A DNA stretch of 64,000 nt from Caballeronia sp. BR00000012568055. GTDB lineage: Bacteria > Pseudomonadota > Gammaproteobacteria > Burkholderiales > Burkholderiaceae. Below are positions 38,805-43,553 of the stretch, piece after piece (the stretch's first letter is position 1; every line of letters starts with the position of its first letter). The DNA lies in NCBI RefSeq assembly GCF_029439455.1, contig NZ_JAQFVG010000358.1, forward strand, positions 140,076-204,075, in the 5' to 3' direction. The position numbers and the translations under genes were made by a program. A model generated the notes under the pieces. It was given only the letters and a program-made list of their open reading frames with translations, was not told where the DNA came from and ran no database searches.

Positions 38805-38825
38805 TGCAGCGTTGAGCTTATGAAG

Positions 38826-38858
38826 AATAATCGGCGCCTCGTGCGCCGATTATTTTTT
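38826..38858 (+). terminator. Terminator after nagE
   Basis: AATAATCGGCGC pairs with GCGCCGATTATT around CTCGT, followed by TTTT. It closes the nag operon and marks the right boundary of the convergent peptide cluster. Confidence 0.92.
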
Positions 38859-38892: not shown

Positions 38893-39210
38893 TCAGGAAT
38901 GAATCGCGAGCTGTATCACGACATAGACCGCGGTGGAAGCGAGCGTAATAAGCACCAGCCCCAGACGTGTCGATAGTGTTGCAATTGCGGTCACGATAAT
39001 GGCCGCTATCGCAGCCACAGGCGCTGCCTGAATTTCGGTCCAGACAATGTAGACCGTGAAGTTGATGAATACCGCGAGCGGCAGCACGCGTTCCAGCAGT
39101 CCACGGCTTGTTTGCGACAGACGAAGCGGCACCAGCGCGGGGAGCACGCGCACGGTGAGGCTCGTCAGAAACAGCGCGAGAATGGCCAGCGCGTGTGACG
39201 ATTCAATCAT
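38893..39210 (-). CDS. azlD: AzlD family small subunit of branched-chain amino acid exporter
   Basis: A 105-residue protein with four predicted membrane helices, matching AzlD/YgaH. RVLPALVPLRLSQTSRGLLERVLPLAVFIN-type sequence in the first half is the family block. With AzlC it forms an efflux complex; relatives (AzlCD, YgaZH, BrnFE) export valine, isoleucine, leucine and methionine. Its ATG overlaps the azlC stop (ATGA). It is the last gene of the putative peptide operon and ends just after the convergent nagE terminator. Confidence 0.9.
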   Translation of the reverse strand: MIESSHALAILALFLTSLTVRVLPALVPLRLSQTSRGLLERVLPLAVFINFTVYIVWTEIQAAPVAAIAAIIVTAIATLSTRLGLVLITLASTAVYVVIQLAIHS

Positions 39211-39923
39211 GCGCCGGCCCTCCACATACGCCACGTCGAAAAAGCGATGCTGGGCAGCCAGAACCACACCTTGCCGAGCATTCCGAACAGCGCCATCGCA
39301 ACGATGACGCACAGCGCGGTCTCGGCAATACGCCGTGAGTTGGCCGCACCAATGCGCGGCACGCGCACCTTGAGCTGACCAAGCGATAGCACGAGCAGCA
39401 CGACACTCGCCGGAAAGCCTAGATTGATGCCTTTGCCAATCAGACCGGGCGGCATCAGTCCGAGCGCAAGCACGCCGGCGACATTGGAAAGAATCCAGAC
39501 CGAGTAGATGGTCGCGCGGATCGTGACCACGGATGCGACCGAGTCTCGCTCGCTTTCCACCGCGTAGGCTTCGTCGCCGAGCATGTGTGCTGCCATTGCG
39601 CGGGCCGTGCGCGAGGCCGGCAGGCGTGATGCGGTGGCGAACGCAATCGGGATATAGCGGCTGTTGATCGATACCGCCATGAACAACATGGTCAATACGC
39701 CCAGACCTTGACCTGACAGCGGTATGAGTGCGAACTGGCCGCTTCCGGAGAAACCGAGCGTGCTGAACAGCAGAACCTCTTCCACACTCCAGCCGGACTG
39801 GGCGGCGAGCACGCCGCATAGCATTGCTACCGGCACGAGCGTCATCGCGGTAGGAAAAGCGCGGACGAACGCCACCCAGACTCGATTCTGCAAGCCGCTG
39901 CCGGAATAGGCGCTCTCCGTCAT
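39207..39923 (-). CDS. azlC: AzlC family large subunit of branched-chain amino acid exporter
   Basis: A 238-residue membrane protein with about six helices. AFPTAMTLVPVAMLCGVLAA, FSGSGQFALIPL and SINSRYIPIAFA are AzlC/YgaZ signatures. It pairs with AzlD, encoded next with a four-base overlap. Its own start overlaps the dioxygenase stop by four bases (ATGA), so dioxygenase, AzlC and AzlD are translationally linked. That linkage argues that the exported compound is made by, or related to, the dioxygenase. Known AzlCD substrates are free aliphatic amino acids, not long peptides. Confidence 0.92.
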   Translation of the reverse strand: MTESAYSGSGLQNRVWVAFVRAFPTAMTLVPVAMLCGVLAAQSGWSVEEVLLFSTLGFSGSGQFALIPLSGQGLGVLTMLFMAVSINSRYIPIAFATASRLPASRTARAMAAHMLGDEAYAVESERDSVASVVTIRATIYSVWILSNVAGVLALGLMPPGLIGKGINLGFPASVVLLVLSLGQLKVRVPRIGAANSRRIAETALCVIVAMALFGMLGKVWFWLPSIAFSTWRMWRAGA

Positions 39924-40672
39924 AGCGCGAGCTCGGCGGGCAGTTTCGTCTCGCTCGCAAGGCGCTCATGAGCAGGACCGTAAGCGCGCTTGTCCCATCT
40001 GTTGATTTCGATGACCCAGATATCCCGGTAGCCCGTCGTGCCGTGTGCCGGCTTCACGTCGGTCGCGTAGTGAATGTATCGCTCGTCATCGATCAGGACG
40101 GCCTGGTTCTCTCCCAGAACCTGTCGATACACGATGTCACGCGATGCAGGGTCGATCACCTGCGTTTCCCCGCCCGTGACGTTGTGCCTTTTAGCCACGA
40201 CGATGACGCTGAATTCATGCCCGTCCCGATGCGGGCCTTCGGGGACCGTCACGCCTTTGAACTCGCCGTTCGCGATCACGCGTATCTGATTGACGTTGAT
40301 CTGATAGTGCACGGTCTGATCGACACCGAGTGCTTCGAGGACCGCCGAGATCACCGGCGACGGATCGCATTCGAGCTGCTCGCGATGGCGCATGACGCCG
40401 CCCGCTTCCGCGAGCCGGATATAGGCCGCTGACTGAATGTACTTGCGCTTTGGCAGCAGTGCGAATATCCACTGTCCTTCCTCGTGATAGCCGAAGTATT
40501 GCGAAAGACGAATCTGACGGAAGCGACCCGGACTGTGCGTATCACGCGGCATGTTGTCGAACGACGCCGCAACGCCGCCGGACAGGGGCGGCGTATTGAT
40601 GATCGCGTAGCCGTGTGACTTGAAGTGGCCGGGTTGCGTAATGGTGGCGCGCTCGTAGGAGAGGGGATTCAT
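39920..40672 (-). CDS. 2-oxoglutarate/Fe(II) dioxygenase of the amino-acid hydroxylase (PF10014-like) family
   Basis: A 250-residue enzyme. The iron-binding facial triad is visible as His148 and Asp150 in EGPHRDGHEF and His201 in RYIHYATDV; Arg216 in GYRDIWVIEI is placed to bind 2-oxoglutarate. The pattern matches the family that contains bacterial L-isoleucine 4-hydroxylase and related enzymes acting on free Ile, Leu, Val or Met. It lies 21 bases after the radical SAM gene and overlaps azlC. Substrate is not known: free aliphatic amino acid is the family precedent, and the valines of the TVGG peptide are a conjecture from context. Confidence 0.87.
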   Translation of the reverse strand: MNPLSYERATITQPGHFKSHGYAIINTPPLSGGVAASFDNMPRDTHSPGRFRQIRLSQYFGYHEEGQWIFALLPKRKYIQSAAYIRLAEAGGVMRHREQLECDPSPVISAVLEALGVDQTVHYQINVNQIRVIANGEFKGVTVPEGPHRDGHEFSVIVVAKRHNVTGGETQVIDPASRDIVYRQVLGENQAVLIDDERYIHYATDVKPAHGTTGYRDIWVIEINRWDKRAYGPAHERLASETKLPAELAL

Positions 40673-40693
40673 CGGATCAGTTCTCAGTGTGTG

Positions 40694-42172
40694 TCAGTGC
40701 GTCTGCAGATCGAAGGTCGCCACCTCGAACGGCCTCAGCGACTCAATATGTTTGCGCGTGATGCCGCGATAAAAATCGCAGGCGGATGTCTCGACTGCAT
40801 CGATTGCCGCGTATTTCTTTTCCAGCGGACCCAGACACAGGCCGGCACAGAAGCCCTCGATTTCGCATCCCCGGCAGGGCGCGGGGTTTTCGTGACGCAG
40901 GCTTGCATGAGCCTGGTACGGTTGCGCATCGAGCAAGGCCGTTCCTTGGCTGATCGAACCCAGTAAAGTCGATCCCGCCTTGCACGCGAAGACCGAGCCG
41001 TTCGGCTCGATACTCAGTTGCGCGCCCTTTGCCGAACAATTCTTGAAGCCGCGTTCCGGCACGGCGTCGTGGCCAGTCAGGAGTTGGAAAATCTGGTGCC
41101 AGTATCCGGTCAGAACGACTCCCCGATACCTTCCGTATTCGACGACCCGCCATAGCCGTTCGACGATTTGCTGTCCGCCGAAACGTGCGTAGAAACCGGG
41201 ATCGAAATCGACGACCACGCCGATTTCGCCCGCGCCGACGTCCACAGCGAGATCGACGATAGATTCATCGAACTCGTTCCAGGTCGATGATGTGAGCGCT
41301 GCATTGATCGCCACGCGACAGCCCTTCGCCTGCAGGCGGCGCAGGCCTTCCATCACCAGTGGCGTACTGTCGCCGCCGTGTTTGAGCGGTCGGCTCGGGC
41401 TGGTCGGCGAGTCGAAACTCACGCATACCGCGACCTCATACCGCGCAAATGCTTCTGCGATCTCTTCGGTTATCAGCGAGCCATTGGTCACGGTTGACCA
41501 GGCAATCTGCATGCGGTCGCGTTCCCCGTTGCCGAATCGCTCCAGAACGGCCTGGATGGCTTTCCAGTTCAGCAACGGCTCGCCGCCAAAGAATTGGATC
41601 ATCACGCTGTTCACGTCCGACGCGCGCGAGATAGCGAGGGCATTTTCGACGTAGCGCACGGCGTCCTGCGGCTTCATGTGGCGATTGGCCGGATCGTACT
41701 GGTGTTCGAAGCGCTCCTTCGACGCGTACATCGAATCATGGAGGTCGATCTTGATTTCATCTGGTGCGTGCAGCCGGCTCAGATCGATTTTGGTCACCTC
41801 CGCTTCGACGGACATCTCCTTTCCCTGGATGCCTTCGAAACAGTAAGTACAGCCGAAGTTGCAGGCGTTGGCGAGGATGAGCTGAATGACGTTGATCTTG
41901 TTTCCGCTCACGGCCGGCTGAATCGGCGCTTCGTTGGAAACGAGAAGGCCGCGCGCCGCCAGCTGCTGGATCAGCTCGATTTCCCGATCCGCGGCCTCAC
42001 TTTCAAGCCATGTCACAGGAATGGTGCGGCCTTCGCGAAACCCGTGCAGCACGCGACGCGCTGGATCGTCGAGCAAGCACAGGCCGCCTCGCTCGCGGTG
42101 GTAGACGGCCGTGTGCTTGTTCGCCGGAACTTCGATGGCGTCAGCGGACAGGACGTATCGTTTGTACTGCAT
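40694..42172 (-). CDS. SPASM-domain radical SAM peptide-modifying enzyme
   Basis: A 492-residue radical SAM protein. Residues 1-90 look like a small winged-helix, PqqD/RRE-like segment (GGLCLLDDPARRVLHGF..QQLAARGLLVSN). The [4Fe-4S]-SAM motif CxxxCxxC is Cys104-Cys108-Cys111 (ACNFGCTYCF). The core barrel has FFGGEPLLNW and a TNGSLITEE segment. The C-terminal SPASM region follows the seven-cysteine pattern, with CRGCEIEGFCAGLC (CX2CX5CX3C) and a later ACDFYRG cysteine, so two auxiliary clusters are expected. Such enzymes modify ribosomal peptides. The ATG at 42172 has GGAG ten bases upstream; a GTG at 42190 is less likely. The repeat peptide gene lies 78 bases upstream. Confidence 0.92.
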   Translation of the reverse strand: MQYKRYVLSADAIEVPANKHTAVYHRERGGLCLLDDPARRVLHGFREGRTIPVTWLESEAADREIELIQQLAARGLLVSNEAPIQPAVSGNKINVIQLILANACNFGCTYCFEGIQGKEMSVEAEVTKIDLSRLHAPDEIKIDLHDSMYASKERFEHQYDPANRHMKPQDAVRYVENALAISRASDVNSVMIQFFGGEPLLNWKAIQAVLERFGNGERDRMQIAWSTVTNGSLITEEIAEAFARYEVAVCVSFDSPTSPSRPLKHGGDSTPLVMEGLRRLQAKGCRVAINAALTSSTWNEFDESIVDLAVDVGAGEIGVVVDFDPGFYARFGGQQIVERLWRVVEYGRYRGVVLTGYWHQIFQLLTGHDAVPERGFKNCSAKGAQLSIEPNGSVFACKAGSTLLGSISQGTALLDAQPYQAHASLRHENPAPCRGCEIEGFCAGLCLGPLEKKYAAIDAVETSACDFYRGITRKHIESLRPFEVATFDLQTH

Positions 42173-42198
42173 TGGATGTGGACTCCGCACGCGTAGTG

Positions 42199-42244
42199 AA
42201 AAAGCGAATGTGCGGGCGACGCCGGGCGAGGGGCGGCCGCCCGC
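42199..42244 (-). terminator. Possible attenuator between the peptide gene and the radical SAM gene
   Basis: On the minus strand GCGGGCG (42244-42238) can pair with CGCCCGC (42218-42212), with GC-rich sequence between them, and a five-T run follows eight bases later. The spacing is looser than in a strong terminator. Partial termination here would give more peptide transcript than enzyme transcript, as is common in peptide operons. Confidence 0.35.
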
Positions 42245-42250
42245 TTGCTT

Positions 42251-42433
42251 TTACTTCGTCAGGCGCGTTTTGAGAACGCTGCGTTGAGCGCCGGATAGCG
42301 TGCCGCCAACGGTTCCACCCACCGTGCCACCAACTGTTCCTCCGACGGTACCGCCCACCGTGCCGCCGACTGTGCCGCCAACAGTTCCACCCACTGTGCC
42401 ACTCATCGTGCTACTGACTACCTTCGTGTTCAT
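42251..42433 (-). CDS. Putative modified-peptide precursor made of TVGG tandem repeats
   Basis: A 60-residue peptide. Residues 1-8 (MNTKVVSS) form a very short leader. Residues 9-48 are ten consecutive tetrads: TMSG, eight perfect TVGG, then TLSG. Residues 49-60 (AQRSVLKTRLTK) are a basic C-terminal follower. There are no cysteines, aromatics or acidic residues. The ATG at 42433 has a GGAAAGG ribosome binding site; a GTG at 42484 in frame lacks one. It lies between an AraC regulator and a SPASM radical SAM enzyme on the same strand, which is the usual position of a substrate peptide. I know no named family for it. The assignment as substrate is inferred from position, size and repeats. Confidence 0.82.
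   Translation of the reverse strand: MNTKVVSSTMSGTVGGTVGGTVGGTVGGTVGGTVGGTVGGTVGGTLSGAQRSVLKTRLTK
42302..42409. repeat. Nine 12-base coding units with strongly varied synonymous codons
   Basis: Eight TVGG units (42302-42397) plus the TMSG unit (42398-42409) on the minus strand. Threonine is written ACA, ACT, ACG or ACC; valine GTG, GTT or GTC; and the two glycines vary among GGT, GGC and GGA, so few neighbouring units share the same 12 bases. The DNA repeat has decayed while the peptide repeat is exact, which points to selection on the peptide. Confidence 0.9.
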
Positions 42434-42461
42434 CGTGGTTACCTTTCCGTAGTTAAACGAC

Positions 42462-42479
42462 GCATCGATGTTCCGATGC
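42462..42479. promoter_or_regulatory. Inverted repeat upstream of the peptide gene, candidate AraC site
   Basis: GCATCG-N6-CGATGC lies about 29 bases before the peptide start. The same half-site, extended as GACGCATCG, occurs in the larger inverted repeat upstream of the AraC gene at 43450-43488. This suggests one regulator acts at both places. Confidence 0.5.
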
Positions 42480-42557
42480 CCCACGAGATTACGTTTCGGT
42501 GTTTCGATCCGTCTTGAACGATTGTGCGAATCGAAATGGCATGGCGCGAAGGCAGAT

Positions 42558-43394
42558 TCAGACTGCGTCGATTCGTCCGAGCATCTTCAGCCATCGGGCC
42601 GGCGAGATGCCGAACGCCTTGGCGAACTGACGAGTCATGTGGCTCTGATCGGCGAATCCGGCTGCCAGGGAACTTCGTGCAAGCGATCCGCCGGCCAGGA
42701 TCGATCGCTTCACCAGATCGAGGCGGCGCAACGTCAGATAGCGATACGGACTGGTGCCGAAGAACGACCGGAAGTCACGCGAGAGACTCCAGCGATCACG
42801 TCCGCTGATATGCGCGAGATCGTCGAGCGTGACGATGCGGCTCAGGTTGTCGTCGATGTATTCGCGTGCCAGTTGAGCCGCGCGAAAGTCGCCGCGATGG
42901 CGTCGTTGATCCTGACCGGACACGGTCTGCAGCGCGATCGCCAGATTCACCAGCTGGTCGTCGCGTTCGAGTTCGCTGCGCGGCAGCGCGATGTCGGACA
43001 ATAATGCGTGCACGGTGGCGTGCAGACGCGGATCGGCGCAGATGCCGCCATCGACGAAAGGCAAAGGGGCATGCCCCAGCGCCTGCTGCAGCAGGCGCGG
43101 CTCGATATAAGCGATCCGATACAAAAATCCTTCTGACGTGCCGGCTTCACCATCGTGAAGTTCGTCCGGATGAATCACCATCGTGTGGCCGGGCAAGCTG
43201 TGGCGGGTTTCGCGCCGATAGTTGAACGACTGGACGCCCGACAATGTTATGCCGATTGCATACGAGTCGTGCCGGTGCGGCTCATAACCCCGACCGGTGA
43301 AGAACGCTTCGAGGCGCTCTAGTCCCGGCTCGTCGCCCGAGCGGCGAATCCAGTCCCGAGCCGGCGCGGTGATGCATTCATTCTGATTCTCCAC
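42558..43394 (-). CDS. AraC family transcriptional regulator of the peptide cluster
   Basis: A 278-residue regulator. The N-terminal cupin-like AraC-binding domain covers about residues 25-150 (PHRHDSYAIGITLSGVQSF). The double helix-turn-helix covers about 172-270 (TLDDLAHISGRDRWSLSRDFRSFFG and ARSSLAAGFADQSHMTRQFAKAFG). Regulators of this subtype are often paired with amino acid exporters of the LysE or AzlC type and probably sense the exported compound. It heads the minus-strand cluster, with 124 bases between its stop and the peptide start. An extended inverted repeat lies upstream of its start. Confidence 0.9.
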   Translation of the reverse strand: MENQNECITAPARDWIRRSGDEPGLERLEAFFTGRGYEPHRHDSYAIGITLSGVQSFNYRRETRHSLPGHTMVIHPDELHDGEAGTSEGFLYRIAYIEPRLLQQALGHAPLPFVDGGICADPRLHATVHALLSDIALPRSELERDDQLVNLAIALQTVSGQDQRRHRGDFRAAQLAREYIDDNLSRIVTLDDLAHISGRDRWSLSRDFRSFFGTSPYRYLTLRRLDLVKRSILAGGSLARSSLAAGFADQSHMTRQFAKAFGISPARWLKMLGRIDAV

Positions 43395-43449
43395 GATGTT
43401 TCCCTGACCCTTGGCATTCCTCTCCTGAAGATGCTATAGCCGGGTGAAA

Positions 43450-43488
43450 GATGCATCGGTAAAAAAATAAAACGATTACCGATGCGTC
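43450..43488. promoter_or_regulatory. 13-bp inverted repeat upstream of the AraC gene
   Basis: GATGCATCGGTAA and TTACCGATGCGTC pair at 12 of 13 positions around an AT-rich 13-base spacer, 56-94 bases before the AraC start. It is a candidate autoregulatory operator and shares the GCATCG half-site with the repeat before the peptide gene. Confidence 0.55.
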
Positions 43489-43521: not shown

Positions 43522-43553
43522 AAAAACCCACTGCCAAGCGGCAGTGGGTTTTT
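43522..43553. terminator. Terminator after rpoH
   Basis: AAACCCACTGCC pairs with GGCAGTGGGTTT around AAGC, with A- and T-tracts on both sides. It ends rpoH on the minus strand and insulates the peptide cluster on its upstream side. Confidence 0.92.

What the first reader, a model, noticed from the sequence alone, without database searches (positions are those of the whole stretch)
38893..43488. Putative new modified-peptide system: AraC regulator, TVGG-repeat peptide, SPASM radical SAM enzyme, amino-acid-type dioxygenase and AzlCD exporter
Seen: six genes on one strand between two strong terminators; a 60-residue peptide of ten Thr-x-x-Gly tetrads next to a SPASM radical SAM enzyme; a 2OG/Fe(II) dioxygenase with a clear His-Asp-His triad; AzlC and AzlD joined to it by ATGA overlaps. 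Known: SPASM enzymes commonly modify ribosomal peptides; the dioxygenase family hydroxylates free aliphatic amino acids; AzlCD exports branched-chain amino acids. Inference: the peptide is a repetitive substrate whose Thr/Val residues are altered by the radical SAM enzyme and perhaps hydroxylated, with either a modified peptide or a small valine-derived product exported. I recall no described system with this exact combination. No peptidase, ABC peptide exporter or immunity gene is visible, which makes a small-molecule product worth considering.
Basis: partly seen in the sequence, partly recalled or inferred. Interest (0 to 1): 0.93.

Follow-up and report, generated by a model that had tools for sequence, protein, structure and literature searches.

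The report
TVGG-repeat cyclopropylglycine peptide cluster (tvg)
This is another copy of a gene cluster already described in 2022, in which a radical enzyme turns the valines of a TVGG-repeat peptide into the unusual amino acid cyclopropylglycine; relatives of the cluster suggest that the peptide may be a throw-away scaffold for making a small amino-acid product.

Summary
In detail: on the minus strand lie an AraC regulator, a 60-residue peptide with ten T-x-x-G tetrads (eight TVGG), a SPASM radical SAM enzyme, a PF10014 dioxygenase and an AzlC/AzlD-like pair.

It is not new. It is the tvg cluster of Kostenko et al. 2022 (PMC9062424), whose TvgB from Halomonas anticariensis turns Val of TVGG into cyclopropylglycine (Cpg). 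The window's enzyme is 68% identical to that strain's. The TVGG peptide and the dioxygenase accompany the enzyme in 18 of 18 proteobacterial relatives. Inside the repeats 283 of 284 base departures are at third codon positions.

I found no report of the final product. My addition: TvgA may be a scaffold for a free amino acid. TvgC's closest solved relatives act on free amino acids; TvgD is AzlC-family; five of 19 relatives carry further amino-acid-type enzymes (NRPS with an AsnO-like oxygenase, an L-amino acid ligase-like protein, a carbamoyltransferase with a LysE exporter). An Actinocrinis variant has TI[A/G]G repeats. Membership about 0.98; free-amino-acid product about 0.55.

The parts
42558..43394 (-). 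AraC-family regulator; 57% identical to the one beside tvg in L. anticariensis
   Evidence: Pfam AraC_binding 5.1e-24, HTH_18 4.1e-18; 57% over 262 aa to L010; a homologue lies beside tvg in 12 of 18 relatives
42251..42433 (-). tvgA: 60-aa precursor peptide, TMSG-(TVGG)8-TLSG core
   Evidence: TVGG peptide in 18 of 18 relatives; silent-site drift with protein-level conservation
40694..42190 (-). tvgB: SPASM radical SAM enzyme, expected to convert Val to cyclopropylglycine
   Evidence: Pfam; 68% identity over 494 aa to the protein of L010, the strain of the characterised TvgB; C110, C114, C117 and SPASM-region cysteines invariant in the 19 rows (L011, L022, L023 not in that alignment)
39920..40672 (-). 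tvgC: PF10014 Fe(II)/2-oxoglutarate oxygenase
39207..39923 (-). tvgD: AzlC-family membrane protein
   Evidence: PF03591 2.4e-24; 50% over 210 aa to L010
38893..39210 (-). tvgE: AzlD-like small membrane protein
   Evidence: no Pfam match itself; 3 of 13 aligned members match PF05437; ATGA overlap with tvgD
43522..43553 (-). intrinsic terminator behind the rpoH-like gene, upstream border
38823..38858 (+). hairpin with T-run between the PTS gene and tvgE, downstream border
   Evidence: seen by eye; not listed by the scan

Best explanation
This is a tvg cluster. TvgA is translated; TvgB, a SPASM radical SAM enzyme, joins the two methyl groups of each Val in the TVGG repeats to give cyclopropylglycine (shown in print for the H. 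anticariensis enzyme; inferred here from 68% identity and the same substrate motif). I infer that TvgA then serves as a multi-copy scaffold: cellular peptidases, none of which I see in the cluster, release the cyclopropyl amino acid (or a very short piece), TvgC oxidises it, most likely as the free amino acid, and TvgD/E, resembling the branched-chain amino acid exporter AzlCD (function recalled), pump the valine/isoleucine-like product out, which would also protect the maker. The AraC protein probably switches the operon. Shown elsewhere: Val to Cpg. Inferred: release, TvgC's substrate, the export role, regulation.
Against: The 2022 authors expected TvgC to oxidise the peptide and TvgD/E to hydrolyse and export it; I found no experiment on TvgC, D or E. 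A fold match to HrmJ/BelL does not show the substrate. Release is assumed, since no peptidase is seen. The window's AzlD has no Pfam match of its own, and its AzlC is far below the NCBIfam azlC equivalog cut-off (23.7 against 332 bits). Variants with extra enzymes are few (5 of 19 relatives, counting Actinocrinis; 13 of 18 proteobacterial loci show plain tvgABCDE, L007 is cut by its contig end), and their link to the tvg product is by gene order only. The NRPS of L018 has a stretch of N and a change of frame; in L016 the contig ends about 2.3 kb after the NRPS start. The Actinocrinis locus has no TvgC or AzlCD match.
Confidence: 0.6

Rival explanations
1. The product is a modified peptide: TvgC oxidises residues of the poly-Cpg peptide while it is still a peptide, and TvgD/E (with host peptidases) export short units or the whole peptide. 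This is close to the expectation of the 2022 paper.
For: Stated by the authors (section 9 read); the repeat design would give several equal units; tvgC goes with tvgA and tvgB in 18 of 18 relatives.
Against: TvgD is AzlC-family, not a known peptidase or peptide exporter; TvgC's nearest solved relatives act on amino acids; some variants carry an amino-acid ligase-like protein, an NRPS or a LysE exporter.
Confidence: 0.3
2. The poly-Cpg peptide is itself the end point, for example a structural or membrane-active intracellular peptide, and AzlCD only balances branched-chain amino acids.
For: The tail after the repeats is kept in outline (most end in L-[S/T]-K), as for a peptide with its own role, though it could equally be a recognition tail; no peptidase is a standing part of the cluster.
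Against: The number of TVGG units runs from 3 to 11 among relatives, which suits a multi-copy scaffold better than a defined structure; variants with small-molecule enzymes.
Confidence: 0.1
3. Chance or pseudogene: a low-complexity ORF that happens to lie by a radical SAM gene.
For: The ORF is highly repetitive and the opposite strand is open too.
Against: 283 of 284 base departures within the repeats are at third positions; the same peptide lies upstream of the enzyme in 18 of 18 relatives; the TvgB reaction is shown in print.
Confidence: 0.005

Closest known systems
tvgABCDE cluster of Halomonas (Litchfieldella) anticariensis DSM 16096, Kostenko et al. 2022 (PMC9062424)
   Same: TVGG-repeat precursor, SPASM radical SAM enzyme (68% id), Fe/2-oxoglutarate oxygenase (64% id), two membrane proteins (AzlC-like 50% id), same order
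   Different: Different host family; the window has eight TVGG units against ten plus one TVSG and one TIGG in L010. The regulator is not named in the parts of the paper I read, although an AraC gene lies there too.
IDO and Hil operons (free L-isoleucine hydroxylation; PMC3684760, abstract and passages)
   Same: PF10014 oxygenase with an amino acid exporter; some Hil operons also hold an ATP-grasp ligase and a PALP-type enzyme, as some variant tvg clusters do
   Different: No precursor peptide or radical SAM enzyme is described in the passages seen; the substrate is a standard amino acid; the exporter is RhtA, not AzlCD
belactosin and hormaomycin pathways (BelL, HrmJ; PMC10764440, passages)
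   Same: Nearest solved relatives of TvgC; a cyclopropane amino acid joined, by gene analysis, by ATP-grasp ligases (belactosin) or NRPSs (hormaomycin), the two kinds also seen in variant tvg clusters
   Different: There the cyclopropane is made by the 2-oxoglutarate enzyme on L-6-nitronorleucine derived from lysine, not by a radical SAM enzyme on a peptide
3-thiaglutamate pathway (PMC9016710; start of the abstract seen in the listing only)
   Same: A ribosomal peptide used as a scaffold from which a small amino acid analogue is released
   Different: The residue that is modified is first appended to the peptide C-terminus from cysteinyl-tRNA

Membership tests
tvg (poly-cyclopropylglycine) cluster | Small precursor with repeated TVGG | tested here: met
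   Eight TVGG in tvgA
tvg (poly-cyclopropylglycine) cluster | Adjacent SPASM radical SAM enzyme homologous to TvgB | tested here: met
   68% identity over 494 aa to the protein of the characterised strain
tvg (poly-cyclopropylglycine) cluster | Fe/2-oxoglutarate oxygenase and two membrane proteins downstream | tested here: met
tvg (poly-cyclopropylglycine) cluster | Enzyme converts Val of TVGG to cyclopropylglycine | not testable with these tools
   Shown in print for TvgB of H. anticariensis; needs mass spectrometry for the window's enzyme
AzlCD branched-chain amino acid exporter | AzlC family profile | tested here: met
   PF03591 2.4e-24
AzlCD branched-chain amino acid exporter | NCBIfam azlC equivalog cut-off | tested here: not met
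   23.7 against 332.35 bits; so AzlC family, not the azlC equivalog
AzlCD branched-chain amino acid exporter | AzlD family profile | tested here: inconclusive
   No match for the window protein; 3 of 13 members of the alignment match PF05437
AzlCD branched-chain amino acid exporter | Exports branched-chain amino acids | not testable with these tools
   recalled function of the family
PF10014 amino acid oxygenases (IDO, HilB, BelL, HrmJ) | Family profile, HxD...H triad and fold | tested here: met
PF10014 amino acid oxygenases (IDO, HilB, BelL, HrmJ) | Acts on a free amino acid | not testable with these tools
   no assay
PapB-type ranthipeptide maturase (best NCBIfam match) | Reaches the curated cut-off | tested here: not met
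   82 against 340 bits

The most novel reading that the evidence does not exclude
tvg clusters are ribosomal factories for a free, non-proteinogenic cyclopropyl amino acid: each repeat peptide yields up to eleven Cpg residues, which are released, oxidised by TvgC and exported through AzlCD as an antimetabolite, or in variant clusters built into small peptides by an L-amino acid ligase or a nonribosomal peptide synthetase. The Actinocrinis variant with TI[A/G]G repeats would make the isoleucine-derived methylcyclopropyl analogue. A ribosomal scaffold peptide feeding an NRPS or amino acid ligase would be an unusual link between the two worlds.
Probability: 0.45. Interest if true: 0.78.

Novelty: new member of a known kind. 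Interest (0 to 1): 0.45.

Why it matters
The cluster as such is known, so the window adds one more host. What matters is the question left open by the 2022 paper, the product of the pathway. The comparison made here points to a released amino acid and offers natural variants that make the question testable: clusters where the same core sits with an NRPS, an L-amino acid ligase-like protein or a carbamoyltransferase, and one where Ile replaces Val. If right, it is a genetically encoded route to cyclopropyl amino acids, several per peptide.

Tried and rejected
Rejected: a wholly new system (the literature search led to PMC9062424); chance ORF; ranthipeptide, sactipeptide or cyclophane maturase by name (no Cys or aromatic residue in the repeats; NCBIfam matches far below cut-off).

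A first version of the repeat test counted only units already translating to TVGG, so its 'third position only' result is true by construction; I replaced it, which takes every tetrad between the first and last TVGG (the two end units are TVGG by choice). L048 was left out because its peptide is the same as that of L009.

Led nowhere: the plasmid search gave one distant Streptomyces record; a scan of 346 genomes of the Actinocrinis phylum at E<=1e-60 found only Actinocrinis itself; a scan of 195 genomes of the Pseudoduganella family at E<=1e-60 found only that genome, though L016 (Massilia) was known, so the draw missed at least one; paper searches for natural methylcyclopropylglycine or cleonine gave no tvg product. 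I tried to read the NRPS substrate code by eye and do not report it.

Searches behind 'no follow-up found': all in an open-access library that lacks most subscription journals. PMC9062424: abstract and start of the introduction, sections 4 and 9 whole, passages of 2, 4, 5, 7, 8, 9, 12 and 22; figures and supplement not seen. PMC11002830, PMC10764440, PMC12710340: passages only. PMC3684760: abstract and passages. PMC10885120: one passage of its reference list. PMC9016710: start of the abstract in a listing.
Full report
What is there. On the minus strand, between a PTS transporter gene (plus strand; name by recall) and an rpoH-like sigma factor gene (Sigma70_r2 and r4), lie six genes: an AraC regulator (43394-42558), a 60-residue peptide (42433-42251), a radical SAM/SPASM protein (42190-40694), a PF10014 oxygenase (40672-39920), an AzlC protein (39923-39207) and an AzlD-like protein (39210-38893). 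One border terminator is listed by the scan; the other I saw by eye.

It is a known system. A full-text search for 'TVGG' and 'radical SAM' led to Kostenko et al. 2022 (PMC9062424). They describe tvgABCDE: precursor with repeated TVGG, radical SAM enzyme, Fe/2-oxoglutarate oxygenase and two membrane proteins. They reconstituted TvgB from Halomonas anticariensis DSM 16096 and concluded from MS, NMR and an authentic Cpg-containing peptide that TvgB joins the two methyl groups of Val in the TVGG motifs to give cyclopropylglycine. My locus L010 is that strain (record title; taxonomy). The window's proteins are 68% (TvgB), 64% (TvgC), 50% (TvgD) and 57% (AraC) identical to those of L010. 'Azl' has 0 hits in the paper's main text. 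A 2024 review repeats the finding and gives the oxygenase as IPR018724, which I recall is PF10014 (PMC11002830).

Distribution. In the window's family 2 of 349 genomes have the enzyme at E<=1e-40, own included; the other is G059, whose contig length fits Trinickia sp. Y13. Of 398 genomes drawn from the phylum, 2 match at E<=1e-50, own included. A pattern scan of the genome collection gave 42 loci: 18 proteobacterial loci with a near full-length enzyme (L006-L023; L023 with frame changes), two remnants (L034, L047), Actinocrinis (L024, 52%) and 21 Streptomyces-type loci at about 30%. The scan uses two short patterns, so this is a lower bound. Of the 18: TVGG peptide 18, PF10014 oxygenase 18, AzlC 15, AzlD 14 (in L007 the contig ends just after AzlC), AraC 12, in L019 on the other strand and downstream. 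Without AzlC and AzlD: L014, L016, L018. The relatives placed in the tree carry labels of nine proteobacterial families (L011, L022 and L023 are not in that tree). In Stutzerimonas L047 AraC, AzlC and AzlD matches remain while the repeats, most of the enzyme and the oxygenase match are gone.

Selection. Between the first and last TVGG of 19 loci lie 153 tetrads; they depart from the locus majority base 283 times at codon position 3, once at position 1 and never at position 2. The DNA units have drifted apart while the protein repeat is held. The number of TVGG units runs from 3 to 11.

Arrival. Twelve loci around the rpoH-like gene were fetched out of 41 same-genus genomes matched, one of them the window's own. 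In 10 of the other 11 the PTS gene ends about 135 to 170 bp (aligned ends) from the rpoH-like gene, i.e. the site is empty; in L055 there is no PTS match and the fetched stretch ends about 190 bp past the gene, so it cannot tell. The cluster was therefore inserted in the window's lineage or lost elsewhere; with 2 of 349 in the family, insertion is likelier. The TvgB tree puts the window with Trinickia, Herbaspirillum and a Pseudomonas (support 96/99), which crosses family lines (long outgroup branches make the deeper forks unsure).

Variants as natural experiments. L016 (Massilia) and L018 (Pseudoduganella): tvgABC, then an oxygenase of one family, the L018 copy nearest asparagine oxygenase (9.7e-18) and arginine/lysine hydroxylases, a threonine dehydratase-like protein and an NRPS. 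In L018 (Pfam) the readable parts are A-PCP, then a stretch of N, then C-A-PCP with a change of frame, followed by an MFS transporter and a thioesterase; in L016 the NRPS was named by eye and the contig ends about 2.3 kb after its start. L008 (Pseudomonas): tvgABCDE, the same oxygenase family, a carbamoyltransferase and a LysE translocator; a LysE-like gene also lies farther upstream in L017, perhaps by chance. L014 (Rhizorhapis): tvgABC and a WelO5-family oxygenase with His-Asn-Asp where I recall halogenases have His-x-Gly, so probably a hydroxylase. L024 (Actinocrinis): precursor with TIAG and TIGG alternating, eight units in all, two tandem radical SAM genes, two ATP-grasp proteins, one with LAL_C2, and an MFS transporter. 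These enzyme types work on free or carrier-bound amino acids by what I recall of them, which is why I favour a released amino acid. Thirteen of the 18 proteobacterial loci show plain tvgABCDE and give no such hint either way; L007 is cut.

Regulation and resistance are inference only. An AraC gene beside the cluster in 12 of 18 suggests induction; AzlCD could double as self-protection; the threonine dehydratase-like gene in L016/L018 could be supply or resistance. None was tested.

Verdict. Membership in the tvg system about 0.98; Val to Cpg by the window's enzyme about 0.95; free-amino-acid product about 0.55; the overall statement 0.6. What may be new is the reading of the variants, which I did not find in the open-access papers searched. 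[quoted passage not shown] its figures and supplement were not seen and may already list them.

Noticed in passing
L005 6887-17419; L025-L033, L035-L046: A Streptomyces-type clade of the enzyme (about 30% identity) sits in a conserved cluster. Of 22 loci, families named by position and by the annotation of L005: carbamoyltransferase 21, NAD(P)/FAD oxidoreductase 19, a 305-aa protein annotated 'inducer of phenazine A' 18, MFS transporter 17, PhyH-type oxygenase 16 (lower bounds, some contigs end early). A 55-aa peptide with TASSRPC[A/G]FVS..GNAPTI was found by my ORF filter in 15 of 22. No TVGG seen. Product unknown to me.
   Followed up: partly
L024 5307-5510: Actinocrinis precursor with TIAG/TIGG repeats instead of TVGG, beside two tandem radical SAM genes and an L-amino acid ligase-like gene.
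   Followed up: partly
L016 9309-11851 onward; L018 9345-11900 onward: tvgABC followed by an oxygenase (L018 copy AsnO/VioC-like), a threonine dehydratase-like gene and an NRPS.
   Followed up: partly
L047 469-2953; L034 7001-7429; L023 7001-9203: Decayed or broken tvg clusters: Stutzerimonas keeps regulator and AzlC/AzlD matches but not the repeats or most of the enzyme; Pseudomonas sp. LD120 keeps a C-terminal remnant of the enzyme; P. lopnurensis shows frame changes in enzyme and oxygenase.
   Followed up: no
window 40694-42190: A solved radical SAM protein (PDB 8vpo, 472 aa) is a clear relative of the window's TvgB (1.8e-84); I found no description of its substrate (one paper mentions the code only).
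   Followed up: partly
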